Of a stretch of DNA of 50,107 bases, positions 5,208-50,107 are shown piece after piece (within the stretch, counting starts at the first letter, position 1; the number at the start of each line of letters is the position of its first letter). Source of the DNA: Candidatus Bathyanammoxibius amoris (lineage in GTDB: Bacteria; Planctomycetota; Brocadiia; Brocadiales; Bathyanammoxibiaceae); NCBI GenBank assembly GCA_024451685.1, contig JAMXCW010000011.1:1-50107 (forward strand), given 5' to 3'. The notes under the pieces are model-generated. The model made no database searches and had not been told where the DNA came from. It was given only the letters and a program-made list of their open reading frames with translations. The position numbers were made by a program, and so were the translations under genes.

Positions 5208-5220
5208 TATCTATATAAGT

Positions 5221-5249
5221 AACCCGTCCGGCAAACGGACGGGTTTTTT
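5221..5249 (+). terminator. rho-independent terminator of the rrn operon
   Basis: AACCCGTCCG (5221-5230), loop GCAAA, CGGACGGGTT (5236-5245), then a T-run: a perfect 10-bp stem. It closes the rRNA operon and isolates it from the Fur-family gene that starts 32 bp later. Confidence 0.95.
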
Positions 5250-5280
5250 ATTACCGAATTCTCATTACCAGAAAACGACC

Positions 5281-5739: not shown

Positions 5740-5943
5740 CCAGACCCGCCCGAACATTCAACAGAGACAGGCCGGTGTCCAACACAAAAGGGTTGCGGAA
5801 ACACCGGAAACAAAAAAGTCTATAAAAGACGAGATTTTTCCCTTTAAATAAGGCTGCAGAAATAGTAGATATACAGTTTATTTATTGCATTCCCACTGGT
5901 TTGTTTCGTGTTACCTGACCAAAATAGCAGGAGGAAATAAAAG

Positions 5944-6315
5944 TTGCTGGCCTTAGACCTCTTAATGGAAGGAATCTTGTTGCTGGCGTCCATCTTGTCG
6001 TTAATCTTTCTGTCCCGCGCCAGAAAGGCGTTAACGCTGAAGTCCGTCGGCCGTGCACGCTTTTTCCTTCTCCTGTTTATGGGCCTGATATTGGTAGAGA
6101 ATGGGCTCGGTATATATTTCGGCTTCAGACGTGGACACGACACCATTACGCTTGAGGCCCTGATCCTGGCCCTGGCCAGCACGGCCATATTTTATTCGGG
6201 CAAGGCCCGGCATGAACGGCCCAGAGAGAACCTGGGTGTGGCGGTCGTCTGTATAGCCTGGACGGTCATGTCCAACGCGCTCGAAGTCATCCTCGGATTC
6301 TTCTTGAGGGCGTAA
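5944..6315 (+). CDS. small integral membrane protein of unknown function
   Basis: 123 residues starting with TTG; a strong AGGAGG at 5929-5934 fixes the start. There are about four hydrophobic segments (residues 1-22, 37-54, 65-82 and 98-120) separated by short basic loops such as SRARKALTLKSVGRAR and SGKARHERPR, consistent with an inner membrane protein. I do not recognise a family. It lies between a Fur-type regulator and a permease remnant, with no obvious functional link to either. Confidence 0.65.
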   Translation: MLALDLLMEGILLLASILSLIFLSRARKALTLKSVGRARFFLLLFMGLILVENGLGIYFGFRRGHDTITLEALILALASTAIFYSGKARHERPRENLGVAVVCIAWTVMSNALEVILGFFLRA

Positions 6316-36394: not shown

Positions 36395-37954
36395 ATGACA
36401 AGAGGAAAAACTGCATTAGGCATAGAGGTCCTGGACGCGGCGAGGGAAACGGTTAAGGAGTCGATAGAGTACGCCGGCTCTCTCAAGGGTTGCCGGTATG
36501 CGGACATCCGGCTCGGCCTCGTGGCGTACAAGTCTGCCAGCTCCGAGAACGGCAGCCCTAAGGGCATGGAGGAAGAGGTGAATATTTCCTTCGGTGTCAG
36601 ACTGGCGGCCGGTGAGATGCCGGCATGGGGCTATTATGGCCAGCCGCTCGGAAAGGCCGACATGAGGAGACTCCGTAAGATATTTCGCGCGGGCATAAAA
36701 AAGGCCCACCAGCGGGCCGTGGCTAATTCCAGGAATAAAATCGCGATGAGAGACCTGGCGCCGTCTTTGGCGCCGGTACGGCTCGCGCCGGTCGAAATAT
36801 GTCAGGACGTTATACCAGCCGTCTTTGACGAAGACCCCCGTGACGTTCGACTGAAAGAGGTGCTCGCGCTCAGCGTCAAGACGACAAAGGCGATGCAAGC
36901 CGTCTCACCAGACGTCAAGTATGCCATGATTGGCGTGGCGACGGGGCTTTCAAGGGAACTGTTTTACAGCACGGAGGGGGCCGCTATCGACCAGTCCGCC
37001 GCCCTTACCCAGGCACAGTTTTTTGTAGTGGCCAGGAAGGAAGGTGCGGTGCCTGAGGCATTCGCAGACCATCTGGGCGCGCACGGGGGATGGGAGGTCA
37101 TAAAGGGGAAAAACGTCTACGGCAAGAACCTCGTGGATTTTGCCCTTGAACGCACCGGGGATACGGTCGAACTGGCAGGGGCCGAGTTTCTCCCCTCAAC
37201 GGACGAACCTGTTGTGGTCGTAACAGACCCGCATTTTAACTCCCTGCTGGTACATGAAGTCATCGGACACCCGACCGAGGCCGACAGGGCGCTGAAGATG
37301 GAGACCGCCTACGCGGGCAGGTCGTGGCTGCTGAGAGGTCTTGCGGACGGCGACAACGAACTCGGCAAGCGGATAGGCTCCGAACTCCTGACAGCATTCT
37401 CAGACCCGGACCTGGAAGGTTACGGGCACTACAAATACGACGCCGAGGGCACTCCTGCCAGAAAAATAATACTGATAGACAAGGGCATATTGAAGGGCTT
37501 TATGAACGGCAGGGAGAACGCGGCCATACTGGGTATGGAACCCAACGGTTCGATGAGGGCGACGGAGTGTCAATACATGCCGCTGGTGAGGATGACAAAC
37601 ACCGTAGTCGCCCCGGGCGGCAGGGACCCTCAGGACATCATTGCAGAGGTGAAGGACGGCTACTACGTGGTTAATAACCGCATACCCTCCATCAGCGAAT
37701 CCAGGGAGAATTTCAGGATATCCGCCCAAAAGGTCTATAAGATAGAAAACGGCAAGCTGGTAAAGCTGTACCGGGGCGGAGGGATAAGCGCGGACTCCAG
37801 AGACTTCTTCATGAACATAGACGCCGTCGGCAATGATTTTAAGATGTTCCCCATACCAAACTGCGGCAAAGGACAGCCCATGCAGGTTATGAAGGTGGGC
37901 AACGGCGGCCCCACCCTCAGGAGCAAGGCCCGGATGACCGGAGAGTACAAATGA
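36395..37954 (+). CDS. tldD: TldD-type zinc metalloprotease subunit
   Basis: 519 residues. The family metal motif HExxxH is present as H287-E288-V-I-G-H292, with downstream LEGYGHYKYDAEGTPARK and the C-terminal core ECQYMPLVRMTNTVVAPGG. TldD pairs with TldE to clip peptides and is used, for example, in maturing modified peptides and antitoxins. The TldE-type gene overlaps its stop by 4 bp. Composition returns to GC-rich here. The natural substrate in this organism is unknown and no small peptide substrate gene is seen next to it. Confidence 0.88.
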   Translation: MTRGKTALGIEVLDAARETVKESIEYAGSLKGCRYADIRLGLVAYKSASSENGSPKGMEEEVNISFGVRLAAGEMPAWGYYGQPLGKADMRRLRKIFRAGIKKAHQRAVANSRNKIAMRDLAPSLAPVRLAPVEICQDVIPAVFDEDPRDVRLKEVLALSVKTTKAMQAVSPDVKYAMIGVATGLSRELFYSTEGAAIDQSAALTQAQFFVVARKEGAVPEAFADHLGAHGGWEVIKGKNVYGKNLVDFALERTGDTVELAGAEFLPSTDEPVVVVTDPHFNSLLVHEVIGHPTEADRALKMETAYAGRSWLLRGLADGDNELGKRIGSELLTAFSDPDLEGYGHYKYDAEGTPARKIILIDKGILKGFMNGRENAAILGMEPNGSMRATECQYMPLVRMTNTVVAPGGRDPQDIIAEVKDGYYVVNNRIPSISESRENFRISAQKVYKIENGKLVKLYRGGGISADSRDFFMNIDAVGNDFKMFPIPNCGKGQPMQVMKVGNGGPTLRSKARMTGEYK

Positions 37955-39411
37955 CCGGTACAGGTATAGATGACCTGAGAGACTGCGTGAGCAAGGGACT
38001 TGAGGCCACAAAGAAGGACGGGGTTGAGATTGAGGTCTTTGCGTCATGGAATGAGCTTGTAACCATGCGGATTAATTACACCTCAGACATCCCCTCAATG
38101 GGCCTGCAGGAGCCAAAGTCCAACCAGTCATTTGGCGTGGGCGTGCAGGCGGCCTTCACGGATAAGGGCAAGGTGACGGTTGGTTTCGGGAGTGAGTCCA
38201 ATAACCTTCACCCCAGGGCCGTCAGGGAGGCCTTCCGGAAGGCAAGACGCTGCCGGCTCTCCGACCCGGACTTTCATTCATTGCCCTCTCCCGCGGGGAC
38301 ACCTACACTCTCAGACTACCACGACCCCGCGGCCATGGAGGTGCAAGACGCCGACGTGGTGGAACTGGGATGGAAGGCACTGAAGGGGGCGCTTGAGGCG
38401 TACAAAGAAAGAGGTATCACCAAATCAATAATCGTAGGCGGAGACGTATGCATCCTGAAGGAGAAAATGGCCATAAAGAGCACCATGGGGATAGAGGAAT
38501 TCGACGAGTCAACCATCCTGACCGCCACGATAACCACAATGGTAGAAGACGAAGACGTTAAGGGCACCGGGTGGAGTACCAGTACCCATCTTGAGGGGTT
38601 TGACCCGGAGGCCGCGGGACGTGAGGCCGCGGAGAGTGCGATACGCACCACGGGCGGCGAGAGGATAGAGCCCGGCGCCTACGAAGTGGTTTTTGGCAGG
38701 CAGCCCGTGACCGACCTGGTATCTCACATAATAGCGCCGTCGCTCAGCCTCTCCTATGTAAATGCCTCCAACACCCCTTTCCTCGGAAAACTGGGCAAGG
38801 AAATATGTTCATCAAACCTGTCTATATACGACCACGGGGCCCTGCCGGGGCAAGTCGCCAGTAAGAAGATTACCTGCGAGGGACTGCCCACGGGCAGGAC
38901 TGATCTGGTATCAAACGGCCTGCTCGTAGGATTCCTCGCCAACCACTATCTGAGTCAAAAACTTTCAGGCCCCGCGGCGGCCTTTGAGCCGAGGAACGGC
39001 TTCAGATTCCACGCCGTGGGCAGAAACAACGACATGCGGGCGGCAATATCTCCCACCAATATAGTGGTGGAGGGCAGGGAAGAGGTATCCTCGGAAGAAT
39101 TGCTTTCCGGCATAAGAGAGGGCCTGTACATAGGGAGGATATGGTACACGTACCCGATAAACGGGATGGCCGCCGGAGATTTCACCAGCACCATCATAGC
39201 GGACTCTTTTTTAATAAAAGACGGAAAGTTGTCAACACCCCTCAAACCAAACACCATAAGGATTAACAGCAACATAAGCCACATCCTGAATAACGTCCGT
39301 TCCGTGACCAAAGAGAAAAAAGCCACGCTGGTGTGGGCGGCCGAAGAGGCTGTGATTGCGCCGGAGATAAGGGTGACGGGGGTAAGGCTGGACGGTATTG
39401 CAACCGCTTAA
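37951..39411 (+). CDS. TldE/PmbA-type partner of the TldD-like protease
   Basis: 486 residues; the start overlaps the tldD stop as ATGA. It has the PmbA/TldE fold features (NYTSDIPSMGLQEPKSNQSF, GAYEVVFGRQPVTDLVSHII, NGLLVGFLANHY, FTSTIIADSFLIKDGK) and lacks the HExxxH zinc site, as expected for the non-catalytic subunit. Together the two genes make a heterodimeric protease. They mark the end of the conserved gene block; accessory DNA starts just after the stop. Confidence 0.85.
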   Translation: MTGTGIDDLRDCVSKGLEATKKDGVEIEVFASWNELVTMRINYTSDIPSMGLQEPKSNQSFGVGVQAAFTDKGKVTVGFGSESNNLHPRAVREAFRKARRCRLSDPDFHSLPSPAGTPTLSDYHDPAAMEVQDADVVELGWKALKGALEAYKERGITKSIIVGGDVCILKEKMAIKSTMGIEEFDESTILTATITTMVEDEDVKGTGWSTSTHLEGFDPEAAGREAAESAIRTTGGERIEPGAYEVVFGRQPVTDLVSHIIAPSLSLSYVNASNTPFLGKLGKEICSSNLSIYDHGALPGQVASKKITCEGLPTGRTDLVSNGLLVGFLANHYLSQKLSGPAAAFEPRNGFRFHAVGRNNDMRAAISPTNIVVEGREEVSSEELLSGIREGLYIGRIWYTYPINGMAAGDFTSTIIADSFLIKDGKLSTPLKPNTIRINSNISHILNNVRSVTKEKKATLVWAAEEAVIAPEIRVTGVRLDGIATA

Positions 39412-39417
39412 AAGCCC

Positions 39418-39434
39418 CACCTTTTGCCCGCCTG
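39418..39434 (+). repeat. 17-bp dispersed repeat, copy 1
   Basis: CACCTTTTGCCCGCCTG. An identical copy lies at 42476-42492 and a close one at 42005-42021. The match with the 42476 copy continues imperfectly for about 17 more bases (RGRTTTGKTGTWAGT). These copies bracket the small-cassette region. Confidence 0.6.
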
Positions 39435-39464
39435 AGATTTGGTGTAAGTTAGTTTTTTTTATGT

Positions 39465-39494
39465 TTGACTTTTCTGTAATGTGATAATTATAAT
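39465..39494 (+). promoter_or_regulatory. probable sigma-70 promoter of the 39608 gene
   Basis: TTGACT (39465-39470), 18 bp, TATAAT (39489-39494). It predicts a leader of about 105 nt before the GTG at 39608. Confidence 0.5.
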
Positions 39495-39607
39495 CGTTCT
39501 CAAGGTTTGGAGTTGACGGATGAAGTATCTCCTAACTAATTAAGAATACCGGCAGGCATAGTGGTCGTAGATTGATAAGTCAATAAAGGGGGGGAGAGCT
39601 GGGACTT

Positions 39608-40525
39608 GTGCAATCCATAATAAAGAAGCGACTGGCATTGTTTCTTCTCTTAGTTCTTTTTTTATCAACATCCTTGGGTGAAAGCGTGAGTTTTGGCAAG
39701 TGTCAGAGATATGTAAAAAAGACTGGGGGACGCTTAGAGGTGGACCTTGGGGGAGGCTTTGGCCTCTTCAAAGGGCAAGTCGGTGTAAAGATCGGCCCTG
39801 CTGAAGTAAAGAGACTGGCCGATACCTCCCTACTTAGTCTTGATATCGTCCAGCACTACTATTGCATGCAGGCCGAAGAGGCAAGAAAGCGGGCAAAAAA
39901 GACTAGGGATGAAGGTGAAAAAATAACTTTCACCAAGCGTGCAAACGATATGCAGGAAAAAAGGGATGAAGTCTTTAATACACTTTTAGAACTGAACAAA
40001 AAACTTTCAGAATTCTCACTTAAGCCATCAGATTCTGAAAAGATTACATCAGACCTCGTTGACTCATTTAGAGAACATAAGAAGGAAGTTTTTGAATACG
40101 GGGAGGGAATTTCAGACAAGAATGTGACGACAGCCTTAAAAGAGTTACATCTGGCTTATGATGAGGCAAGCCCTTTTCTAATAAAGATGGAAATAACCGA
40201 CCCTCCCGATGGAGAGAAAGTTGGAATGACTTATATCGTGAAAGGAGAGGTTTCAGATCCGACCTATCAGGTGTATGTATTAGTACACCCCCTCATGACG
40301 GACACTTGGTGGGTACAAACCATTCCAGAGGTCAGCCCTGATGGCACCTGGCGAACACGTTGCTATTTTGGGACAGAAACGGCAGGTATAGGTGAACCTT
40401 TTGAGATAATTGCCCTAGCCGCCACTGAAAAGAATCTATTACATAGCGGACAGACAATACCGGTAGGTAGGCTTCCAGAAACAGCTATTAAATCAAGGAT
40501 TATACAGGTAGAACGTACTCAATAG
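39608..40525 (+). CDS. exported protein with helical and Ig-like parts, unknown function
   Basis: 305 residues starting with GTG after a GGGGGAG stretch. A signal peptide (residues 1-24, KKRLALFLLLVLFLSTSLGE) is followed by a helical, lysine- and glutamate-rich region (about 65-195) likely to form coiled coils. The C-terminal part (about 195-295) reads ITDPPDGEKVGMTYIVKGEV and then VYVLVHPLMTDTWWVQ, which resembles a beta-sandwich domain found in various exported or membrane proteins. It is AT-richer than the tldDE block. No function can be assigned. Confidence 0.7.
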   Translation: MQSIIKKRLALFLLLVLFLSTSLGESVSFGKCQRYVKKTGGRLEVDLGGGFGLFKGQVGVKIGPAEVKRLADTSLLSLDIVQHYYCMQAEEARKRAKKTRDEGEKITFTKRANDMQEKRDEVFNTLLELNKKLSEFSLKPSDSEKITSDLVDSFREHKKEVFEYGEGISDKNVTTALKELHLAYDEASPFLIKMEITDPPDGEKVGMTYIVKGEVSDPTYQVYVLVHPLMTDTWWVQTIPEVSPDGTWRTRCYFGTETAGIGEPFEIIALAATEKNLLHSGQTIPVGRLPETAIKSRIIQVERTQ

Positions 40526-40621
40526 CGAAATAAAGTCGTTTTAATGCCTCCCTACTTATGCTACATCTTCATTGGCGTGCCTTAACTATATAGGGCAAGG
40601 CGGGAGAATAGGGAACTCGTC

Positions 40622-40885
40622 ATGATGGGCAATCTGAGTCCAGCGTTCAAAGATCATGACCTGTTGCTGCGTGAGGCACCTAAGTTCCGGTCTGATCCTT
40701 CCCTTGTGCTGATCTTTGAGAAGTTCCCAAACAGGAATGACCCGTTATGCCTTGACCCCTTGGTCATAGTTCGGCGCTTCCTTCTTGACGTTGGTGGGAG
40801 ACTGCAGGCAGGGACGTTAGGAGAGTTGGCAATCTTGATGACGATGGAAGCATCCGCAAACAACGTGAAGGTTTCATACGTTTGA
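40622..40885 (+). CDS. small hypothetical protein, possible integron cassette gene
   Basis: 87 residues, beginning MMGNLSPAFKDHD. There is no signal, no recognised motif and no good ribosome site. It is listed because its stop lies 17 bp before the attC site at 40903, which is where a cassette gene normally ends. It may be spurious. Confidence 0.3.
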   Translation: MMGNLSPAFKDHDLLLREAPKFRSDPSLVLIFEKFPNRNDPLCLDPLVIVRRFLLDVGGRLQAGTLGELAILMTMEASANNVKVSYV

Positions 40886-40902
40886 ATTTTGGCAAACAGA
40901 CC

Positions 40903-40974
40903 GCCCAACGAGGCGCTGCACCTGACCGCTATTCCGCTGCGCTCCATAGCGGCAGGTGAGCTTTGTCGTTGGGC
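40903..40974. other. integron attC recombination site (59-base element)
   Basis: Inverse core GCCCAAC (40903-40909, RYYYAAC) and core GTTGGGC (40968-40974, GTTRRRY) are part of a perfect 9-bp outer match GCCCAACGA/TCGTTGGGC. The inner arms GCTGCACCTGACCGCTAT (40915-40932) and ATAGCGGCAGGTGAGC (40946-40961) pair fully except for two extra bases, G40918 and A40925. These sit exactly where attC sites have extrahelical bases that orient the integrase. The terminal loop is 13 nt. All sequence rules of an attC site are met; no integrase gene is in the window. Confidence 0.88.
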
Positions 40975-40997
40975 AACAAGAAAAAGGAGGAACCGCA

Positions 40998-41786
40998 ATG
41001 ATCAAGAAGCAAGTGTTCACTATTGCTATAGCCATGATGATGGTATTCCTTATCCTTGGCAGCGATAAGACTATGGCACAAAAGGTTGAGGCATCTGCGA
41101 AAACTTCAGAGAAAGCAACCAAAGCTAATTCAGCAGTTCTTACAGCGGGCGGAACCGCATATGTGCGAGTCAAGCAGTATTTCACATTGTCTGGTGAACC
41201 GACCGTGAGAGACTCTCTTGGAGGGATCGGGTATGTGCTAAAGAATTTGAATCCAGCGGGTGCTGTAGCAATTATCGCAAAGCCGACAGAAAACGACGCC
41301 ACCTTTTCCTTTGGCGATGCAGTAACGCTAATTGAGAAGAAGGACGGTCTTCCCACTATGTGGCTTGTGGCCAAAGCTCAGACAAAGGTTTGGATACCTG
41401 CTTATGTCCTCACAGCTAACAAGGCAGAGATTGATTTTTTGAAGGAGAATAACAGGATTCCAGAAACAATGTCTTACATCTATGATGACGAAGGGCGGAA
41501 AGTGTGGGGTGTTTTCATTGGTGGGTTCGGCAACAGCTTTGTCGTAGATTCTTACGGCATGGTGTTAATGGCTTACGCAGAAGGCACAAGTCCCTTCGCT
41601 ATCAAAGGCAATGCAGTTGTATTTGATGAGTCGGTGATGAAAAAGACATGGGAAAAGCCTCCTGTATTTAATAGCGCAAAAAAGGCATTTAAGCTAACTC
41701 CATCCTGTTTGTATTATTGCGTTTCTGAAGGTGACAAGTCAGCTTTTGAGTGTATAGACTTGGTCGAACTTAAGATCTCTAAGTAA
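40998..41786 (+). CDS. exported protein of unknown function (cassette position)
   Basis: 262 residues from the ATG at 40998, set by AAGGAGG at 40984-40990; a GTG reading from 40956 would run through the attC core. A signal peptide (residues 1-27, TIAIAMMMVFLILGSDKTMA) is followed by a possible SH3-like or beta-rich region (TAYVRVKQYFTLSGEPTVRD, WLVAKAQTKVWIPAYVLT) near residues 50-135. The rest is not recognised. It begins 23 bp after attC, as an inserted cassette gene would, but I find no second attC after it. Confidence 0.7.
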   Translation: MIKKQVFTIAIAMMMVFLILGSDKTMAQKVEASAKTSEKATKANSAVLTAGGTAYVRVKQYFTLSGEPTVRDSLGGIGYVLKNLNPAGAVAIIAKPTENDATFSFGDAVTLIEKKDGLPTMWLVAKAQTKVWIPAYVLTANKAEIDFLKENNRIPETMSYIYDDEGRKVWGVFIGGFGNSFVVDSYGMVLMAYAEGTSPFAIKGNAVVFDESVMKKTWEKPPVFNSAKKAFKLTPSCLYYCVSEGDKSAFECIDLVELKISK

Positions 41787-41876
41787 TATCAATAATGGCC
41801 TTGAGAAATTAAAGGGGACGGAAATTAGGGGTGGTTATGGCATATAGGCTCCAGCCAGATGTGAGCCAGCCTGGTA

Positions 41877-41895
41877 GGGTGGACAGTGTCCACCC
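41877..41895. repeat. perfect palindrome GGGTGGACA-G-TGTCCACCC
   Basis: A 19-bp perfect palindrome with a single central base in the 372-bp gap 41787-42158. It has no T-run and may be a protein-binding site or the end of a small repeat. Confidence 0.5.
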
Positions 41896-41933
41896 TTGTA
41901 CAAAACTAACGCCAAACAAATAGGAGAAAAGTA

Positions 41934-42038
41934 ATGAATCAAGTAGTTAAAGAAACCAAGTTCATCGTGTTGCCAAAGAACCAATTTTGGACAAATTCCG
42001 CCCACACCTTTTGCCCACCCGGCAGATGTTGTCTATAA
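41934..42038 (+). CDS. short ORF with a good ribosome site, probably a truncated gene
   Basis: 34 codons starting MNQVVKETKFIVLPKN with AGGAG at 41922-41926. The dispersed repeat CACCTTTTGCCCACCCG (42005-42021) falls inside its end, so it looks like the 5' end of a gene cut by rearrangement. Confidence 0.35.
   Translation: MNQVVKETKFIVLPKNQFWTNSAHTFCPPGRCCL
42005..42021 (+). repeat. 17-bp dispersed repeat, diverged copy
   Basis: CACCTTTTGCCCACCCG differs at two positions from the copies at 39418 and 42476. Confidence 0.45.
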
Positions 42039-42071
42039 GGGGGTAGCCGTAAGTCTTTGTCAGTAAAGGTT

Positions 42072-42116
42072 CGGCGCGTGGTTCAGCCTGGTTAGAGCGC
42101 GGCGTTCGGGACGCTG
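42072..42116 (+). pseudogene. 5' half of a tRNA-Pro (CGG) gene
   Basis: CGGCGCG (acceptor 5' strand), TG, D-arm GTTC-AGCCTGGTTA-GAGC, then anticodon arm CGGCG-TTCGGGA-CGCTG with anticodon CGG. It closely follows bacterial tRNA-Pro(CGG) up to the anticodon stem. After 42116 there is no T-arm or matching acceptor strand. The break is in the region where tyrosine integrases often use tRNA genes as attachment sites. Confidence 0.75.
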
Positions 42117-42212
42117 ACTTCAACCCTTTTTAGAATCGTTTCCCGGCGTCTGAAAAAACTAGTAACCATATTCCCCCTCTTCCTCCAAGATGACTTCCTT
42201 TCTGTATCGCGA
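42102..42212 (+). repeat. 111-bp direct repeat, left copy
   Basis: It starts in the tRNA-Pro anticodon stem (GCGTTCGGGACGC) and is repeated at 49997-50107 with a single difference (A42135 against G50030) and no gaps. The right copy runs to the window edge, so the repeat may be longer. The copies are 7,895 bp apart and bound the ChrB/ABC-transporter unit. Confidence 0.95.
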
Positions 42213-42296
42213 AACAATGCCGCTCCTGGTCACAATGCCTACAAGTTTCTTCGGGTCTTCCTCGCTTACCACAGGCAGGCAATTGGCATCCAGCAT
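42159..42296 (-). pseudogene. 3' end of a CBS-domain protein gene
   Basis: The minus strand encodes NCLPVVSEEDPKKLVGIVTR followed by SGIVSRYRKEVILEEEGEYG-Y and a stop at 42159. LPVV...LVGIVTRS is the C-terminal half of a CBS domain, as found at the end of ClC-type channels or other regulators. Upstream of about 42296 the frame merges into unrelated DNA, so only about 45 codons survive. The same 3' end begins again at 50054. Confidence 0.75.
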
Positions 42297-42401
42297 TCCG
42301 AACTCCGCGAATACGAAAAACAAATTGATCGGCTCATCTATAAACTCTACGGCCTTACGCCGGAGGAGATTAAACTTGTTGAAAGCTTCTCTAATTCCTG
42401 A
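42276..42401 (+). pseudogene. 3' end of an Eco57I/TaqI-type DNA methyltransferase gene
   Basis: The plus strand reads ELREYEKQIDRLIYKLYGLT followed by PEEIKLVESFSNS and a stop at 42399-42401. I-D-x-L-(V/I)-Y-x-L-Y-G-L-T-x-E-E-I-x-x-V-E is the recurrent C-terminal end of type IIG and Eco57I-like methyltransferase/restriction proteins. Only about 40 codons remain, and the 5' side runs into the CBS-gene fragment on the other strand at about 42276-42300. It is a scar of a lost restriction-modification gene. Confidence 0.65.
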
Positions 42402-42475
42402 CCATGAAAAAAAATTTAGCGAAAAGCGAAAGACATTTAAAAACACTTACGACACGAGAGGCGTCAGAAAGCACC

Positions 42476-42492
42476 CACCTTTTGCCCGCCTG
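42476..42492 (+). repeat. 17-bp dispersed repeat, copy 2
   Basis: CACCTTTTGCCCGCCTG, identical to 39418-39434 and in the same direction, 3,058 bp apart. The 42402-42578 stretch around it contains no gene I can support. Confidence 0.6.
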
Positions 42493-42578
42493 GGGTTTGT
42501 TGTTAGTATGTTCAATTCTCTGCTAAAAGGCAGTAAAGTGGAGTCCAAATGCGTTTATTGTGGGAGCACGGAAACTCA

Positions 42579-43610
42579 CTATGCGTTGCGAGGAATGATT
42601 ACGGTTCCTGCTCCCAGTGAAAAATGTACCTCACTACCCTCAGTCAGCCACTCCTTTGAAAAGGTAGTAAGCTTGATGTTGTCATACTGCAGGACATATT
42701 GATAAGTAGCCCCTATATATGCCCTTTTACGAATCCTCCCCTTATATTTTCCATCCTTGCCAAGCTGGATAGAGTCGGGGCGAAAAAGGAGCAAGACCTT
42801 GCCTCTTGTTAACCCTTTTGTATTACACCTTAATTGACCAAAGGGTGTGTCTACTAAATCCTTGTTAACGGCCTCAGCCTCGAGAATATTAGAGTCTCCA
42901 ACAAACCTTGCTACAAATTCTGTGGAGGGATGCGAATATATCTCCTCAGGAGAGCCTATCTGCTCTATCCTACCATGGTTCATCACGGCAACCTTACTGG
43001 CTAGAATAAAGGCCTCTTGCTGATCATGGGTAACATAAAGTGTGGTTATCTTTAGTTCTTCCTGTAATCGTGGTATCTCTACCCTTAATTCTTCCCGCAG
43101 GTGTACATCCAGATTAGAAAGTGGCTCATCCATAAGCAGCATTCTGGGCTCAGGGGCAATAGCCCTACCTATCGCCACTAACTGCTGCTGACCACCAGAA
43201 AGACTGGAAGGATAGGTACCTCCATATTTTTCTAATTTTAACTTATTGATTACATCCTCAACTCTTTTCTTCCTGGCAAGCCTACGAATACCGACCGCCT
43301 TGAGACCAAACTCTATATTCGCCTGAACCGTCATATGAGGCCATAGGGCCTGGTCCTGAAACACCATGCCTAGATGTCTAGCCGTCGGCGTCATCTTGTT
43401 TCTGCCCTTGGTACTGGCCAGTCTGCCATCAATCCAAATCTCTCCTTCGTCAGGTGTTTCCAATCCCGCTATCATCCGCAAAGTGGTAGTCTTGCCACAA
43501 CCTGTTGGACCCAAGAGTGCCAATGTTTCACCTTCCTCAATACTAAAGGTTATTTTGCTAACTATGGGCACTCCTTTAAATCTCTTGGAAACTCCCTTTA
43601 AAACCAGCAT
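42579..43610 (-). CDS. ABC transporter ATP-binding protein (FbpC/PotA-type)
   Basis: 343 residues. Walker A is GPTGCGKT (34-41), the signature is SLSGGQQQL, Walker B is MLLMDEPLSNLD, and the switch histidine is in LYVTHDQQEA. A C-terminal TOBE-like domain follows (about 240-343). This is the CUT1/Fe(III)/polyamine subclass of importers. The start overlaps the permease stop by 13 bp, so it is translationally coupled and last in the operon. The substrate is inferred from the binding protein. Confidence 0.93.
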   Translation of the reverse strand: MLVLKGVSKRFKGVPIVSKITFSIEEGETLALLGPTGCGKTTTLRMIAGLETPDEGEIWIDGRLASTKGRNKMTPTARHLGMVFQDQALWPHMTVQANIEFGLKAVGIRRLARKKRVEDVINKLKLEKYGGTYPSSLSGGQQQLVAIGRAIAPEPRMLLMDEPLSNLDVHLREELRVEIPRLQEELKITTLYVTHDQQEAFILASKVAVMNHGRIEQIGSPEEIYSHPSTEFVARFVGDSNILEAEAVNKDLVDTPFGQLRCNTKGLTRGKVLLLFRPDSIQLGKDGKYKGRIRKRAYIGATYQYVLQYDNIKLTTFSKEWLTEGSEVHFSLGAGTVIIPRNA

Positions 43611-45211
43611 AGCCGTGTTCTAACCAGATGAATAATGCCTAAGAACATCCCTACCGGCACAAGCACTATAACTACCAACAATACGGAGACGGCAGCTACG
43701 ACATTTGTTGGGCTGTTTGCCATTACAGTAAACAATGCTATGGGAAGTGTCTCCTGACCAGGTGGATATACCAGAATGGTCGTCCCAATCTCTCCTACAC
43801 AAAAGATAAAAGAGAGAAGCCAGGTAATCATAATGCCACTCCCTACAAGGGGTATAAGTATCTTTCCCTTAAGTCTCCACCAGCCTGCCCCCGCGACCTC
43901 AGCGGCATCTACCAAATTATTAGGGACCTGTCTGTAAGAATCTGCCATGGTACGCGCCGCAATAGGGGCAAACCTGGCTACGTAACCTATAATAATTATA
44001 ATAAATGAGCCATACACGAATTGGGAAAATCCATCCGGCCTATTCCACAGTCTTATCAGGCCTACACCAATTACAGTGCCTGGTATGGCAAATAACATTA
44101 CCATGGAGAATTCCATACCCTTACCGATGTAAATCCTAGCCTTTTCAGAAAAATAGCCTATGGCTAGTCCCAATAGTGTGATGAGGCTTGCCCCAACAAC
44201 ACCAAAGACAAGGGTATTCATTATGCTTTGTCTCGTGAGTAAAAAAGCCTTCTTATAGGCATCCAGAGACCATGAATCCATTACCAATGTTACCAGTGGA
44301 AAGACTACCACCACTGCCAATATTAGACAGCAAGCAATGACACACGGTATCTTCCACCGTCCCAGGAGATATTTATATGTTCTAGTATTAGTTCCTCTTC
44401 CCAGGGCCTCAAATGACCTACCCTTTAAATATATCCTCTCGACCACCATAAGTGAGACAGTCACACAGACTAGTGGTATGGAAAGGGCCACCGCAGCTTT
44501 TTCGTTATAAAAGGCGCTAAATTGGGTAAATATCTGGGTAGTGAGTACCTTTATATCAAGTAGGAATGGCACACCAAACTCAGACAGCGTCAAGATAAAC
44601 ACAATAAGCATCCCTGAAAATATACCCGGAGCGGCAAGTGGAAGCAGGACTTTCGTTATAACTCTGCCTCTTCCTTCAAAGATAAGACCGCTTTCCTCCA
44701 TGTGGGTACCCACCCTTGAGAAGCTTCCTTCTGCTATCAACATTATGACGGGAAAGAAGGACAGTCCCAGTACCATAGCCCCACCAAAGGCACTATACAT
44801 AAAGCTGGAAATCATATCTGCCGTCACGAATGGTATGCCTGAAATGAGGTTGTTTAGCAGGCCAGTCTTTCCCAACAGGTCGGCCCAGGCGAGACCGTAA
44901 ATATACGACGGTATAATAAAAGGCACAAGAAAAAGTATTCTGTAAATGCCCTTAAACGGTAAGTCGGTTTTGCCAAAGAGAAAGCCCGTAAATATCCCTA
45001 AGATAGTCGAAAGTGTTGTAGTTAAAAAAGCAAGAAGTAGTGAGTTAAGAAAGAACAGGCCTGTCTTGTAGTCTGTAAACACTTCTTTATAACTTGAGAA
45101 AGAGGGCCTTCTATCTACCACAAAAGAGTCTCCAAACATCCACAGTATAGGCAGAAATACTAGGAAGAAGATGAGTGCCGCGGTAAGACCAAAGATTATC
45201 TTCTTTGTAAT
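43598..45211 (-). CDS. Fe(III)-type ABC permease, two fused halves, apparent AUU start
   Basis: 537 residues if it begins at ATT (45211). The nearest normal start (ATG 45139) would cut off the first membrane helix (KKIIFGLTAALIFFLVFLPI). AGGAGG lies 6 bp before the ATT, and an in-frame TAG lies just upstream, so no ATG, GTG or TTG can serve. Two copies of the permease EAA loop are visible (FEGRGRVITKVLLPLAAPG and AGAGWWRLKGKILIPLVGSG), as in FbpB/SfuB, with about 12 helices in all. It lies 15 bp after the binding-protein gene. Confidence 0.88.
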   Translation of the reverse strand: MTKKIIFGLTAALIFFLVFLPILWMFGDSFVVDRRPSFSSYKEVFTDYKTGLFFLNSLLLAFLTTTLSTILGIFTGFLFGKTDLPFKGIYRILFLVPFIIPSYIYGLAWADLLGKTGLLNNLISGIPFVTADMISSFMYSAFGGAMVLGLSFFPVIMLIAEGSFSRVGTHMEESGLIFEGRGRVITKVLLPLAAPGIFSGMLIVFILTLSEFGVPFLLDIKVLTTQIFTQFSAFYNEKAAVALSIPLVCVTVSLMVVERIYLKGRSFEALGRGTNTRTYKYLLGRWKIPCVIACCLILAVVVVFPLVTLVMDSWSLDAYKKAFLLTRQSIMNTLVFGVVGASLITLLGLAIGYFSEKARIYIGKGMEFSMVMLFAIPGTVIGVGLIRLWNRPDGFSQFVYGSFIIIIIGYVARFAPIAARTMADSYRQVPNNLVDAAEVAGAGWWRLKGKILIPLVGSGIMITWLLSFIFCVGEIGTTILVYPPGQETLPIALFTVMANSPTNVVAAVSVLLVVIVLVPVGMFLGIIHLVRTRLCWF

Positions 45212-45226
45212 GGATGCCTCCTATAC

Positions 45227-46240
45227 TCAATAGCCGGACCACTTTTTTAGATATGGGTATATCTCTTCCAGCTTATTGGCTACTTCTCTGTAATCTACCT
45301 CGGATTCCTCTATATCCCTAATAGTGACTATGTTTTCTGGTCCCGTAACCCAGGGACGGAGGGGTATCTGCACACATTCTGCATGAGCAAGCTTTTCCTC
45401 TACCTCTGCGCTGAGCAGGAAATCTAATAGTCTTTTTGCATTCTCCGGATTTGGCCCATTCTTTATCATGCAGACCATATTGGGCATTAGAAGCGCCCCC
45501 ATACCTTCCTGGTCAGGATAGATCATACCTACGGGAGCGCCTTCCAGCATAGCCACATTGACATCATCTGTATCGGTTATACCTGCCGCCACCTCACCTC
45601 TTGACACTAGCCTCCTCACCTCACCATTAGAGGAAACTATCCTGACATCATTGGCCTTTAACGCCTCAAAAAACTGCGTGGCCTCTTCGTCTCCCAGGAT
45701 CACAAAGAGTGCGGCTGCATGGATGGTTGTGGTACCAAAAAGGGGATTTGCTATAGCCACCCGACCTGACCACCTAGGCTTTAGAAAATCGAATATAGAT
45801 TTTGGTATTTCTTTGGGTTTTACCAAGTTTTTATTATAAATAATTGCTCGTACCCTGGCAGAAAAACCCGTCCAATAACCTTTCTCATCCTTGTATATGT
45901 CAGGTATATCTCTGGCATTAGGAGATTTGTAAGGTTCTAGCATACCCCTTTTCTCCAGGAGTATTGGCCTGACAGGGTCGCCGCTCCAGAATACATCCGC
46001 CTGCGGGTTACTTCTCTCGGCAATGAGGCGGTTGACTATACCGGTACTTTTTGCCTCCTCAGTATCAAAGATTGCTTTTACCTTAATACCACTTTCCCCC
46101 TCAAAGTCTTTAAGGACAGGCCCCGAAAAGAGTCTGTCCACAGAGGTATAGACCACCACTTCCTGACCCACTACTTCTACCTTTGACAAGCTCGAGAAAA
46201 CTGTCAGAAAAATTAGCGTGACAAAATACTTTCCCATCAC
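45227..46240 (-). CDS. periplasmic substrate-binding protein, Fe(III)/AfuA-type
   Basis: 337 residues from GTG (46240); the ATG at 46237 is an alternative. A signal peptide (1-25) is followed by VVVYTSVDRLFSGPVLKDFE, ADVFWSGDP, GYWTGFSARVRAIIYNK, FLKPRWSGRVAIANPLFGTT, GEVAAGITDTDDV and a C-terminal AKRLLDFLLSAEVEE. This is the family of FutA, AfuA and FbpA-like proteins, mostly ferric iron binders, though some relatives take other ligands. The start overlaps the stop of the upstream gene (TGATG). With the permease and ATPase it forms a complete importer. Confidence 0.9.
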   Translation of the reverse strand: MMGKYFVTLIFLTVFSSLSKVEVVGQEVVVYTSVDRLFSGPVLKDFEGESGIKVKAIFDTEEAKSTGIVNRLIAERSNPQADVFWSGDPVRPILLEKRGMLEPYKSPNARDIPDIYKDEKGYWTGFSARVRAIIYNKNLVKPKEIPKSIFDFLKPRWSGRVAIANPLFGTTTIHAAALFVILGDEEATQFFEALKANDVRIVSSNGEVRRLVSRGEVAAGITDTDDVNVAMLEGAPVGMIYPDQEGMGALLMPNMVCMIKNGPNPENAKRLLDFLLSAEVEEKLAHAECVQIPLRPWVTGPENIVTIRDIEESEVDYREVANKLEEIYPYLKKWSGY

Positions 46241-47688
46241 TCTAAAGCCTTCACAACAAGGTTATCAAAATAGGTAATGGAATCGGCCTTTGTCCAGAGG
46301 CCGATTTTGCCTTTCTCAAAAGTGTTATCTTTCACTTCTAAATAAAACCTATCATCGTAACAACACAGAATTTTATCTCCATTATTTATGATCTTAATGG
46401 TATGCCATTCTCCCGGTGTAACTTTTAGATGCGCTGAGTCTAGTTGCTTGCGATTACCATTTACCACTTTGTAAACCCGGAAGTTATTTTCTAAAGGATT
46501 GGCCCGGGCAACATAGTAGTTATCAGGGTCTTGATAACGCCAGATTGGGCCACCCCCTTGGTCTTCATCTCCTGATACAGCCTTGAACTTCACTTCTAGT
46601 TCAAGGTCACCATAATCTGTATTTTCGATCACAGCTAAGTTGAAGTGATAGCCAGAGTTTTCATTTGAGGTCTGTGCTAATACATGAGGCGGGGTAAGGG
46701 CAGTTTCATCCTCAATTATTTCCCAACAGCCAAGATTTCCCATACCAGTTACCTGATTTGAAAATCCTTTAGGTAACTTCCCAACGCTTTCTTTATCAAA
46801 ACTCCATAATGGGTCTTCAGTTCCACCAACAAATCGTAAAGTAATTGCCTCCGGGGAGACCGAGTGTTCCCAGTAGAGTTCGTCGTCGAGAACAGCAATA
46901 GCGCAGATGTTATCTTTGGTTGAATCAATTACAGCGTCATCATTGTGACCTGTATTGAACTTGCGCGACAACTCCAGTGTCCATTTCTTTCCGTCATGCG
47001 TTCCTTTACCGAGAACATCCGCCAGGCTGCCGGTAGGCTGACGATGTTCAAAGGAATCTACTAACTTACCCTTAAAGGCTATTGGTTTGGATTTCAAGTG
47101 GTAGGAAGACGTTCCCCCATCCAGAATACGTGCGATATAGACCTTTCCATGTCCACCCATTGAGTATTCGTGCCCACCACGGATTGGTTTCTGACTGATA
47201 ATGTGTCGCTTATCGTCCACCCAACCCACGGGGTTACCACGTCCAGCCTTCCAGTGCCATACATCTGCAGTGTACTCGTGAACCAATGTCAACATAGAAA
47301 CGACGAAGTCCCCTGTCATGGGAAATTCTATGGCAAACTGATCATCAGGGTTCGATGGCCGTTCATAGTCTTTCTTCTCGTCGTTCCAGACATACGGATC
47401 CCGCAAGTCATCCCTGGTGTCATCAGGCCATTGAGCCATTACATAAAAGGCATCATTGGTATGAAGGGCACGAAGGACTACCGGTTTTGGGTCACCACCT
47501 CCTATAGCTTCCCTCACCATAACAGTGAGGGGGTTAGCTTTTTCCCAAATCTCATCCATCTTCCCGTCTATAATTGGTGGCGTCTTTGTATAAGAGGACT
47601 CCAAAACGGGAGGCGTAATCTCAGCGCTCCATCCATATTGAAAACACAGGTGTGAAAGAACAACTACTGATATTACAAATTTTATCAT
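46237..47688 (-). CDS. exported ethylbenzene-dehydrogenase-type haem-domain protein with LamG-like tail
   Basis: 483 residues. A signal peptide (1-22) is followed by an N-terminal domain of the EB_dh/CBM9-like type (about 25-275): PPIIDGKMDEIWEKANPLTV, DAFYVMAQWPDDT, DQFAIEFPMTGDF and KKWTLELSRKFNTG. Relatives bind haem b (ethylbenzene dehydrogenase gamma subunit). The second half (about 290-483) is a concanavalin/DUF1080-like sandwich with YHFNLAVIENTDYGDLELEV and GEWHTIKIINNGDKILCCYD. A fusion of these two domains next to an iron importer is unusual. AAAGGAGG precedes the start. A redox or metal-handling role is inference. Confidence 0.78.
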   Translation of the reverse strand: MIKFVISVVVLSHLCFQYGWSAEITPPVLESSYTKTPPIIDGKMDEIWEKANPLTVMVREAIGGGDPKPVVLRALHTNDAFYVMAQWPDDTRDDLRDPYVWNDEKKDYERPSNPDDQFAIEFPMTGDFVVSMLTLVHEYTADVWHWKAGRGNPVGWVDDKRHIISQKPIRGGHEYSMGGHGKVYIARILDGGTSSYHLKSKPIAFKGKLVDSFEHRQPTGSLADVLGKGTHDGKKWTLELSRKFNTGHNDDAVIDSTKDNICAIAVLDDELYWEHSVSPEAITLRFVGGTEDPLWSFDKESVGKLPKGFSNQVTGMGNLGCWEIIEDETALTPPHVLAQTSNENSGYHFNLAVIENTDYGDLELEVKFKAVSGDEDQGGGPIWRYQDPDNYYVARANPLENNFRVYKVVNGNRKQLDSAHLKVTPGEWHTIKIINNGDKILCCYDDRFYLEVKDNTFEKGKIGLWTKADSITYFDNLVVKALE

Positions 47689-47919
47689 ACTATGGCTCTT
47701 CCTCCTTTATTAGACTTGTTAGTATCAAGTATGGGCCTGCTGAAAATCTGTGTAGGTACAGATCGTGCCGGAGGCATCCCTCCTACATTTTTTGGCCCAT
47801 TTTGGTGGTTCGGCAACAGCCTCATTTAACACACACATTTAAACCTGTTAAAACCCCATTTGCCATACCGATTCTAACCCCTTGGAAGTTGGTATTGGAA
47901 CCCCTGGGTGCTTCAAGGT

Positions 47920-48150
47920 TTAACCTCCCATCTTCTCCTCCGGGCTGGCCTTCTCCCTGCAGTCTTGTTCCCCTATCATGTTATCCACCACCGCCTGCCA
48001 ATCGGTGGCAATGTATTCTGTTTTCTCTAAAACCCTTTCCAACGGATGGCATAGAGAACATTTGTCCTTGAAGAGCAAAACACGTTCTTTCGCTTTCTCC
48101 TCTAGGGCAACAACGGTAAACAACAAGCCTGTTAAAAAGTGTACCCTCAT
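47920..48150 (-). CDS. small exported monohaem cytochrome c
   Basis: 76 residues. A short hydrophobic N-terminus (MRVHFLTGLLFTVVALE) is followed by the haem site C31-SL-C34-H35 in KDKCSLCHPLERVLEKTEYI and a helix WQAVVDNMIGE. The start overlaps the ChrB stop as ATGA, so it is coupled to that gene. It probably donates or accepts electrons for the EB_dh-type protein encoded next (inference). The 231 bp between this gene and 47688 hold no gene I can support. Confidence 0.8.
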   Translation of the reverse strand: MRVHFLTGLLFTVVALEEKAKERVLLFKDKCSLCHPLERVLEKTEYIATDWQAVVDNMIGEQDCREKASPEEKMGG

Positions 48151-49106
48151 GCCCTTTTCAGACCTTTATACAGGTATTCAAAAAATTGGATACCTTCCTC
48201 TAGCAGGATGTTATCCTCGTCATATATATCCATTATCCCCTTTAACAGGAGAATAACCGCCTTCGCCTCCTCCTTCCCATACTTACCATCCTTGAGGTCG
48301 GCATCGTGGACAATCCTAGAAATTTCCCATGCGGCAGGGTCTTTGATGCCAAACCTCTTTAGCATGGTCTCTATAGTGCAATCATCCCCATGATGACTGA
48401 ATTCGACCCCCACCATGTCAAAAGGTATAAACCCGCCAGGCAGTGGGTCTCCTGCCTTTTGAAAAGAGAAATTGGCCTTGGGGTCAATAAACCTCCTTAT
48501 AAACCAGGCAGTAGCTAACCTGTCCACATGAGGTCTTTTGCGCGTTATCCACCTTTTCTTCCGAAAATCCTCCTTCCTCAGTGGGGTCAACACACCGGGA
48601 TGCTTTCTTTGTCTTTTAGCCTCTACAGCCTTTGTGCAACGGAGGAAGAGCTTCTTAGTCTCTTTAGCGAGCGGAGCACTGAAAAAGTCTATCTCCGCCA
48701 AAGTCTTTAGTTTTTTTTCTATAGGAGTTAGCTCCTTATTCAAAACATCTCCCTCGGCAGCTGTTTTTTCCTTCCCTCGAGTAATCTTTTTGAGGAGGGA
48801 TTCACATGCCGTTATTATTCCCCGATAGTCCGCATCTCTTGCGGTATTAAAGAGCCCGATAATGTCTTGATCCTCTAGGTTCTCTATGCCGTTTGTCTTC
48901 ACCAGGGTGGCCTCTCCCCCCACGGACTGAATCTCCTGGCCTAGCCATTGGAAGTTCTCGTAAGTCCTCTCAGTTAAAGGGAGGATATAAACGGAATTCT
49001 TCAGGGAAACTGCCCCAAGTTGCCTGAATTTCCGCCACAGCCTCATCCTTTCCTTAGAGGCCTTCACGGGTAGGCTGTACATCAACAAGATCCACTGTAG
49101 TGTCAT
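48147..49106 (-). CDS. chrB: ChrB-like chromate-resistance family protein
   Basis: 319 residues from the ATG at 49106; a longer in-frame reading to 49178 adds an unlikely tail. The N-terminal domain (LLMYSLPVKASKERMRLWRK, LGAVSLKNSVYILPLTERT) matches the ChrB N-terminal family. The C-terminal domain (WITRKRPHVDRLATAWFIRR, FDMVGVEFSHHGDDCTIETM) matches the chromate-resistance C-terminal family with its conserved H, D, E and H residues. Known ChrB proteins regulate or support chromate efflux, but no chrA is present. It is the first gene of the six-gene operon that runs to 42579. Confidence 0.87.
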   Translation of the reverse strand: MTLQWILLMYSLPVKASKERMRLWRKFRQLGAVSLKNSVYILPLTERTYENFQWLGQEIQSVGGEATLVKTNGIENLEDQDIIGLFNTARDADYRGIITACESLLKKITRGKEKTAAEGDVLNKELTPIEKKLKTLAEIDFFSAPLAKETKKLFLRCTKAVEAKRQRKHPGVLTPLRKEDFRKKRWITRKRPHVDRLATAWFIRRFIDPKANFSFQKAGDPLPGGFIPFDMVGVEFSHHGDDCTIETMLKRFGIKDPAAWEISRIVHDADLKDGKYGKEEAKAVILLLKGIMDIYDEDNILLEEGIQFFEYLYKGLKRA

Positions 49107-49141
49107 GTTATACGTATACCATATGTAATAGATAATACAAT

Positions 49142-49169
49142 ATTTTAGTTGAATTCCACACAATGTCAA
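49142..49169 (-). promoter_or_regulatory. sigma-70 promoter of the chrB/ABC operon
   Basis: On the minus strand TTGACA (49169-49164), 16 bp, TAAAAT (49147-49142), about 36 bp before the chrB ATG. It is the only good promoter seen upstream of the six-gene run. Confidence 0.55.
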
Positions 49170-49185
49170 GTATAACACTTACATT

Positions 49186-49201
49186 GTTACTAAGTTACTA
49201 A
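49186..49201 (+). promoter_or_regulatory. tandem GTTACTAA repeat in the divergent promoter region
   Basis: Two perfect head-to-tail copies of GTTACTAA lie between the chrB promoter and the 49228 gene. They could be an operator controlling both directions (inference). Confidence 0.35.
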
Positions 49202-49227
49202 ACAGGTTGTATAAGGGGGAACCAAAA

Positions 49228-49800
49228 ATGAGATGGGCCATATTCTTAATATTGACGCTTTTGCCATCCCTTTCCTTTGCACAGGGGGAATGGGGTGGGC
49301 CTCTGCAGTCCTTATCTCAACAGGAAAGGGTGGAAATGGTAACTCTCATATTTAAGATGCACGTATATGACCTTGACCAAGCAAAGCACAAGAAGTTCTG
49401 GGAAATAGCAGATTCCCATAAATGGTCCGAAAAAGAGTTGCCGGAGTTGTTTGATAGGCTTTTCGGCAGAGGTACTGTGCGCCAGCGGTATATGCTACGG
49501 GCGGTCCTTAGTGCGTATGAAAAGAAGAAGGATACAAAGAGTACTGAATTCCAGGAGTATGAGGCCAAATTAGTCAAGTTGGAAGTAATCGCCCCGGAGG
49601 AAATAAAGGAGTCCGATGAATTTATTTATAAAGTAGCTCACGGAGAACCCGTGGTAATTGAGGGCCTTTGGGGAGACCCTTGGGCAGAGCCCATATTCAA
49701 CGATCATTGGGCAGAAAATTACCGCGCCAATCTTGACATCATAGATAAGTACCACAAACAATCCCTGCAACTTTTTGATAGGAACTGGAAGGGTGAGTAG
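49228..49800 (+). CDS. exported protein of unknown function
   Basis: 190 residues from the ATG at 49228, with AAGGGGGAA before it. A signal peptide (MRWAIFLILTLLPSLSFAQG) is followed by a helical domain (about 30-105, LSQQERVEMVTLIFKMHVYD) and a charged C-terminal part (KVAHGEPVVIEGLWGDPWAE). I do not recognise the family and there is no CxxCH. It is divergent from the chrB operon and shares its control region, so it may belong to the same system. Confidence 0.7.
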   Translation: MRWAIFLILTLLPSLSFAQGEWGGPLQSLSQQERVEMVTLIFKMHVYDLDQAKHKKFWEIADSHKWSEKELPELFDRLFGRGTVRQRYMLRAVLSAYEKKKDTKSTEFQEYEAKLVKLEVIAPEEIKESDEFIYKVAHGEPVVIEGLWGDPWAEPIFNDHWAENYRANLDIIDKYHKQSLQLFDRNWKGE

Positions 49801-49996
49801 AAAGTAATTCTTAATTGTTCCTACGGAAACATACTGAATTCATCGTCTACAAATTAAGCCGCTAAATTTCTCGCTAAATATTGGGCTAATTGGTTTCATA
49901 ATTTTGTGCTTCCCTATTTCTTCTTCCAATATTACCTAAAATCTTGTATTTCTAGTTATTTACCTTATTCTTGAGAGTAAGCTCACAACAGTTAAT

Positions 49997-50107
49997 GCGT
50001 TCGGGACGCTGACTTCAACCCTTTTTAGAGTCGTTTCCCGGCGTCTGAAAAAACTAGTAACCATATTCCCCCTCTTCCTCCAAGATGACTTCCTTTCTGT
50101 ATCGCGA
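49997..50107 (+). repeat. 111-bp direct repeat, right copy (runs to the window edge)
   Basis: Matches 42102-42212 at 110 of 111 positions. The DNA before it (49801-49996) is AT-rich, holds no gene I can support, and does not resemble the tRNA half found before the left copy. Confidence 0.95.
50054..50107 (-). CDS. 3' end of a CBS-domain protein gene, cut by the window edge
   Basis: The last 17 codons and stop of the same C-terminus seen at 42159 (ending VILEEEGEYGY). This copy may be the intact gene, because its upstream part lies beyond the window. Not decidable from here. Confidence 0.55.
   Translation of the reverse strand, partial: SRYRKEVILEEEGEYGY

What the first reader, a model, noticed from the sequence alone, without database searches (positions are those of the whole stretch)
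42072..50107. 7.9-kb unit between 111-bp direct repeats that begin in a tRNA-Pro anticodon arm
The left copy (42102-42212) starts inside the anticodon stem of a half tRNA-Pro(CGG) gene. The right copy (49997-50107) has the same sequence after unrelated AT-rich DNA. Simple integration would restore a tRNA half at each end. Instead, both cores are followed by the same element end, which fits two or more islands stacked at one tRNA site. The unit carries a complete operon but no integrase, so it would be mobilised in trans or by homologous recombination. The single mismatch argues against a pure assembly overlap.
Basis: partly seen in the sequence, partly recalled or inferred. Interest (0 to 1): 0.75.

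Follow-up and report, generated by a model that had tools for sequence, protein, structure and literature searches.

The report
Inserted operon flanked by gene-end copies
A transporter operon sits next to a chloride-channel gene in an uncultured planctomycete, and the repeat at its two ends is a copy of that gene's tail plus a scrap of a tRNA gene; this looks like an ordinary chromosomal insertion rather than a new kind of mobile element.

Summary
The repeat is real, but it is not an island end. It runs past the window, across a 100-N scaffold gap (50108-50207), and is 214 bp long with 207 matches. It consists of 13 bp of a tRNA-Pro anticodon arm, 44 bp downstream of clc, and the last 157 bp of clc, a CLC/CBS chloride-channel gene. 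The right copy leads into the complete resident clc; the left copy is a truncated fragment. In two relatives clc lies 0.13-0.3 kb from the same TldD/PmbA gene pair, so about 10.5 kb of lower-GC DNA separates them only in the window's genome. Most of the operon occurs in the same order in three other genomes of the family. No integrase lies on the scaffold. The half tRNA-Pro is genuine, but no tRNA 3' half follows it. 'Stacked islands with the same element end' is therefore not supported. Most likely, incoming DNA carrying its own clc tail recombined with the resident tail by one crossover. The copies share an 80-bp exact tract at the scaffold break, so another connection (a 7.9-kb circle) cannot be excluded without reads.

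The parts
36395..39411 (+). Two TldD/PmbA-family genes (36395-37954, 37951-39411): conserved left neighbour of the insertion
   Evidence: PmbA_TldD_3rd; 78-84% identical to G001 and G004, where clc follows directly
39412..42038 (.). Outer block of the insertion, 44.8% GC, with two ORFs of unknown family (39608-40525, 40956-41786)
   Evidence: no Pfam or NCBIfam match; the protein of 40956 found in 1 of 59 genomes, its own; that of 39608 not searched in relatives
42039..42117 (+). 5' half of a tRNA-Pro(CGG) gene (from 42071) with upstream DNA like that of the G001 and G003 tRNA-Pro genes
   Evidence: 5' half 69 against at most 29 in shuffles
42102..42315 (-). Left copy of the repeat: 13 bp of tRNA arm, 44 bp, and the last 157 bp of clc (stop codon at 42159-42161), truncated
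   Evidence: 207 of 214 identical to the right copy; tblastn match
42300..42401 (+). Remnant resembling the C-terminal tail of an Eco57I/TaqI_C-type DNA methyltransferase; its border with the clc fragment is uncertain (about 42292-42315)
   Evidence: 14 of 24 residues identical to a G048 protein; DNA matches
42579..49178 (-). Operon: ChrB-like (48147-49178), small CxxCH protein (47920-48150), EB_dh plus 3-keto-disaccharide-hydrolase-like protein (46237-47688), solute-binding protein (45227-46240), permease (43598-45139), ATPase (42579-43610)
   Evidence: relatives; CxxCH read by eye
49207..49800 (+). Divergent gene of unknown family beside the operon
   Evidence: no Pfam, PHROGs or NCBIfam match; 35% over 99 residues at the edge of the G006 operon contig
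49801..49996 (.). AT-rich DNA (30.6% GC) left of the right copy
49997..50107 (-). Right copy of the repeat (window part): 13 bp of tRNA arm and the 3' end of the complete resident clc, which continues past a 100-N gap to 51983 of the scaffold
   Evidence: clc reads in frame across the gap if the gap is 0 bp
39411..39449 (+). Short repeat around CCACCTTTTGCCCGCCTG at the left border of the insertion; related copies at 42000-42032 and 42471-42507

Best explanation
This is an insertion of about 10.5 kb, so far seen only in the window's genome, between a TldD/PmbA gene pair and clc. Shown: the two relatives that have this gene order lack it; its GC is lower than that of its flanks; its operon is a gene cluster that other members of the family carry; and its inner 7.7 kb lies between a truncated and a complete copy of the end of clc. 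Inferred: an earlier event joined a tRNA-Pro 5' half to the DNA downstream of clc. Later, DNA carrying the operon and its own version of this junction and clc tail recombined with the resident tail by one crossover (Campbell-type, RecA-dependent). This left clc complete on one side and a dead clc fragment on the other. No site-specific recombinase is needed. The repeat has no function of its own, although it could let the unit be lost again by recombination.
For: In G004 and G001 the clc match lies about 0.3 and 0.13 kb from the same TldD/PmbA gene, against about 10.8 kb of scaffold here. GC is 44.5% for the unit and 44.8% for the outer block, against 51.6 and 53.0% in the flanks and 55.2% in clc. 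The repeat is the clc 3' end, 207/214. The copies are equally far from relatives (left and right: 53 and 54 of 200 sites from G004, 64 and 64 from G001), and changes fall on both. That fits two alleles better than an old copy decaying on the left. 5 of 6 coding differences are synonymous. None of the six integrase matches lies on C11. Most of the operon lies in the same order in G005, G006 and G007, all of it in G022.
Against: The two-allele argument rests on seven differences, of which one is unclear, one lies in a poorly alignable noncoding stretch, and one may belong to the methyltransferase remnant. How incoming DNA came to carry a clc tail is not shown. The lower GC is not strong proof of foreign origin: a 10-kb piece of C1 is 50.1% and the G006 operon contig 44.4%. 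The 80-bp exact tract (42136-42215) and the scaffold gap leave the connections unproven. The right border of homology falls in a tRNA anticodon arm, a classic place for tyrosine integrases (recalled). No donor was found in IMG/VR (25-mer only), plasmids or phages.
Confidence: 0.5

Rival explanations
1. Site-specific integration in trans: a tRNA-Pro tyrosine integrase, absent from this scaffold, inserted the unit at the anticodon-arm core GCGTTCGGGACGC; the element's attachment site had captured the clc tail from an earlier host.
For: The border of homology of the right copy falls in the anticodon arm. In the same-genus genome G001 an integrase overlaps tRNA-Pro(CGG), and in G010 one lies beside it. 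A tRNA gene lies in 13 of the 15 loci fetched for this integrase family, G001 included (no baseline was run).
Against: No tRNA 3' half after the core. Homology runs 200 bp past the core into a chromosomal gene. None of six integrase matches is on C11, and the only one in the genome passing E 1e-20 against the G001 enzyme is 33% identical, on C4.
Confidence: 0.18
2. Break repair: a foreign or relocated piece was joined into a break at the clc tail by short matches, and repair copied the 214-bp target to both sides.
For: The left clc fragment abuts a methyltransferase remnant with no clean border, and the site carries several gene scraps. A long target duplication would give exactly these direct copies.
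Against: The match to methyltransferase DNA within the overlap is weak (12 of 18 by eye). A dead left copy should have changed faster than the working gene, but the copies are equally distant from relatives. A 214-bp duplication is long for such repair (recalled).
Confidence: 0.17
3. Assembly choice: across the 80-bp exact tract the assembler joined the wrong partners. In truth the tRNA half runs into complete clc, and the operon unit is a 7,895-bp circle or belongs to another strain.
For: The scaffold gap lies 3 bases before the end of the 80-bp exact tract; both ways of joining give the same local sequences.
Against: The scaffolder placed the unit next to clc, presumably from read pairs (inference); no replication gene was recognised among the ORFs scanned; both scaffold halves match the gene order of relatives, although this fits either reading.
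Confidence: 0.12
4. One reading: two or more islands stacked at one tRNA-Pro site and sharing the same element end.
For: Half tRNA-Pro at one core and a core piece at the other.
Against: The 'element end' is the resident clc tail, in conserved gene order; no tRNA 3' half; no integrase on C11.
Confidence: 0.03

Closest known systems
tRNA-gene genomic islands (Islander type; PMC4383910, abstract read)
   Same: Extra DNA bounded by repeats that include part of a tRNA gene
   Different: No integrase on the scaffold; no restored tRNA with a displaced fragment; homology continues 200 bp into a protein-coding gene
Elements that insert in the 3' end of a protein-coding gene, such as e14 in icd of Escherichia coli (recalled; one search gave a search listing only)
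   Same: A complete target gene on one side and a displaced 3' fragment of about 200 bp on the other
   Different: No integrase or phage gene recognised; the repeat also holds 13 bp of a tRNA arm; the left fragment is followed by a gene scrap
Single-crossover (Campbell-type) homologous insertion
   Same: Direct copies of a homologous stretch flank the inserted DNA and no recombinase of its own is needed
   Different: The donor and its circular form were not seen

Membership tests
tRNA-gene genomic island | Encodes an integrase | tested here: not met
   PF00589 search: 6 matches in the genome (5 over cut-off), none on C11
tRNA-gene genomic island | Restored complete tRNA gene at one end | tested here: not met
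   ARAGORN finds no tRNA at either copy
tRNA-gene genomic island | Displaced tRNA fragment at the other end | tested here: inconclusive
   Only 13 bp of anticodon arm at 49997-50009; no 3' half
Element in the 3' end of a protein-coding gene (e14 type) | Complete target gene on one side, displaced 3' fragment on the other | tested here: met
   Complete clc to 51983, fragment at 42159-42315
Element in the 3' end of a protein-coding gene (e14 type) | Integrase and other mobile genes | tested here: not met
   (10 sequences by Pfam and 4 of the window's proteins by PHROGs; not every ORF)
Campbell-type homologous insertion | Direct copies of a homologous stretch flank the insert | tested here: met
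   214 bp, 207 identical
Campbell-type homologous insertion | Circular donor carrying the homologous stretch | not testable with these tools
   No reads; no match in plasmids or phages, none of a 25-mer in IMG/VR

The most novel reading that the evidence does not exclude
The 7.9-kb unit is an integrase-free passenger whose composite attachment site (tRNA-Pro anticodon arm fused to the tail of clc) is recognised in trans by the tRNA-side integrase family found in its relatives, so that an ordinary transport operon moves between genomes and still cycles as a 7,895-bp circle.
Probability: 0.06. Interest if true: 0.5.

Novelty: new member of a known kind. Interest (0 to 1): 0.2.

Why it matters
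It shows how a gene cluster of one bacterial family can sit at a new chromosomal place without any recognised mobile gene of its own, and it gives a caution: a repeat that stops at a scaffold gap can look like an island end when it is the tail of a resident gene. Otherwise it is a modest, ordinary case of local insertion and scarring.

Tried and rejected
Stacked islands: rejected because the shared 'element end' is resident clc. tRNA 3' half after the core: local alignment score 10, reached by 60% of shuffles. Rfam on 41000-50107: no match up to E 5. Terminator role for the shared downstream DNA: folding no better than shuffles (z -0.18). Mobile or phage genes in the insert: none recognised among the sequences scanned by Pfam (10), PHROGs (4 of the window) and NCBIfam (8 of the insert); no separate transposase search was made. 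The 25-mer of core plus downstream DNA in IMG/VR: none. 42060-42420 in plasmids and phages: none. Literature: searches were seen as search listings; one abstract was read (PMC4383910); I make no claim about what is or is not in print.

Full report
WHAT IS THERE. The 111-bp repeat at 42102-42212 and 49997-50107 is real. The window is positions 1-50107 of a 63,737-base scaffold, C11, in a 2.07-Mb genome of 26 contigs, 95% complete. Positions 50108-50207 are 100 N, so the window ends at a scaffold gap, not at the end of the repeat. Past the gap the match goes on at 94% (50208-50310 against 42213-42315). Together the repeat is 214 bp with 207 matches. The longest exact tract is 80 bp, 42136-42215, and the gap falls 3 bases before its end. 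That is what a short-read assembler would be expected to do at such a repeat (inference). With a gap of zero bases clc reads through in frame, so the 100 N are probably a placeholder.

THE REPEAT IS A GENE TAIL. On the minus strand the right copy is the 3' end of a complete CLC chloride-channel gene with CBS domains. Its stop codon would lie at 50054-50056 if the gap is zero, and it starts at 51983. The orthologue in G004 matches Voltage_CLC and CBS; identity is 76% to G004 and 74% to G001. The left copy is a fragment of the same gene with its stop codon at 42159-42161. So the sequence that follows both tRNA cores is the resident clc tail, not an element end.

THE TRNA PIECE. 42071-42117 matches the 5' half of a tRNA-Pro(CGG) gene, 91% identical to the intact gene on contig C1. 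It and its upstream DNA match the tRNA-Pro genes of G001 (85% over 42039-42117) and G003 (83% over 42042-42117), while the match to the C1 gene starts only at 42071. After the anticodon arm no tRNA 3' half can be seen. The 13 bases GCGTTCGGGACGC open both copies of the repeat and occur nowhere else on C11, on either strand. The joint between the tRNA half and the DNA downstream of clc therefore existed before the repeat was doubled (inference).

THE INSERTION. In G004 and G001 the second TldD/PmbA-family gene and clc are neighbours, with about 0.3 and 0.13 kb between the matched parts; here about 10.5 kb more lies between them. That the order is Brocadiales is recalled, from no call. No clc match was reported in the other six genomes of the family searched (G002, G003, G005-G008), so only two relatives inform the empty site. 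GC is 44.5% for the unit and 44.8% for the outer block, against 51.6% and 53.0% in the flanks and 55.2% in clc; a 10-kb piece of C1 is 50.1%.

THE OPERON. It reads ChrB-like, a small protein, an EB_dh plus 3-keto-disaccharide-hydrolase-like protein (the second domain just under its Pfam cut-off), solute-binding protein, permease, ATPase. In G006 and G007 of the same family ChrB, the second domain, solute-binding protein, permease and ATPase lie in the same order. In G005 the contig ends in the permease, so the ATPase is not seen. G022, of another family, has the whole order with EB_dh as a separate stretch. The EB_dh part was not matched beside the operon in G005-G007. Solute-binding proteins are 70 (G005), 66 (G006), 68 (G007) and 48% (G022) identical. 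Neither of the two operon proteins searched was found in G001 or G004, which are 90 and 89% complete. The ORF at 40956-41786 was found in 1 of 59 genomes, its own. So the unit looks like a family gene cluster at another place, not a package of mobile genes. None of the six integrase matches of the genome lies on C11.

JOINTS. The inner end of the left clc fragment runs into the remnant of a DNA methyltransferase tail: 14 of 24 residues identical to a G048 protein that matches Eco57I and TaqI_C. DNA matches in relatives start at 42292 or 42298, inside the clc fragment that ends at 42315, but the match there is weak (12 of 18 by eye), so the border is uncertain. A short repeat around CCACCTTTTGCCCGCCTG stands at 39417, 42004 (one mismatch) and 42475, next to block borders. 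At up to one mismatch the genome shows only these three; three more sites have two mismatches, and the reversed control gave three at that level. In one search (59 genomes with its own, one mismatch, stricter pattern) the own genome gave two sites with one control hit, and G056 gave one. Its role is unexplained.

HOW IT AROSE. Of the seven differences between the copies, six are coding and five of those synonymous. Against G004 and G001, three are changes on the left (42309, 42297, 42221), three on the right (42293, 42216, and 42135 in poorly alignable noncoding DNA), and one (42240) is unclear. Left and right differ from G004 at 53 and 54 of 200 sites and from G001 at 64 and 64. A dead copy left by an old duplication should have changed faster than the working gene. 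Equal distances fit two alleles, one brought in with the insert, but the numbers are small. I therefore favour a single crossover between the resident clc tail and incoming DNA that carried its own (0.5).

INTEGRASES AT TRNA GENES. The tRNA reading is not baseless. In G001 a tyrosine integrase gene, cut by the contig end, overlaps tRNA-Pro(CGG): gene 5223-6086, tRNA 5212-5288. Its last 21 codons read as the antisense of the tRNA (by eye). In G010 an integrase of the family lies beside tRNA-Pro(CGG). A tRNA gene lies in 13 of the 15 loci fetched with the best matches of this family; no baseline was run. In the window's genome only one match passes E 1e-20, 33% identical, on C4.

VERDICT. Real repeat, real insertion, wrong reading of what the repeat is. 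It is an ordinary kind of chromosomal insertion with a gene-tail duplication, in an assembly that cannot prove its own joints here.

Noticed in passing
L047 (G001:C250) 5212-6086: A tyrosine integrase whose last 21 codons are the antisense of an intact tRNA-Pro(CGG) gene; 13 of 15 fetched loci of this integrase family hold a tRNA gene, of several kinds.
   Followed up: partly
L051 (G003:C359) 14957-14994: A decayed second tRNA-Pro copy 9.4 kb from the intact gene, possibly an old island scar.
   Followed up: partly
window 39417, 42004, 42475: Short repeat around CCACCTTTTGCCCGCCTG at three block borders of the insertion and nowhere else in the genome at 0-1 mismatch; unexplained.
   Followed up: partly
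window 46237-47688: One ORF joins an EB_dh domain and a 3-keto-disaccharide-hydrolase-like domain that match two separate stretches in G022.
   Followed up: no
L107, L108, L109 (G059, G052, G048): Scraps like methyltransferase tails, with similar upstream sequence and stop codons close by, look like a dispersed repeat in a related family.
   Followed up: no
L075 (G000:C12) 3-170: Contig C12 starts inside what looks like the C-terminal end of an integrase gene (below the Pfam cut-off).
   Followed up: no
L005 (G000:C1) and L050 (G004:C30): The intact tRNA-Pro(CGG) of the window's genome shares its neighbouring genes with that of G004, but no match to these genes was found beside the tRNA-Pro of G001, G003 or G006 in the stretches compared.
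   Followed up: no
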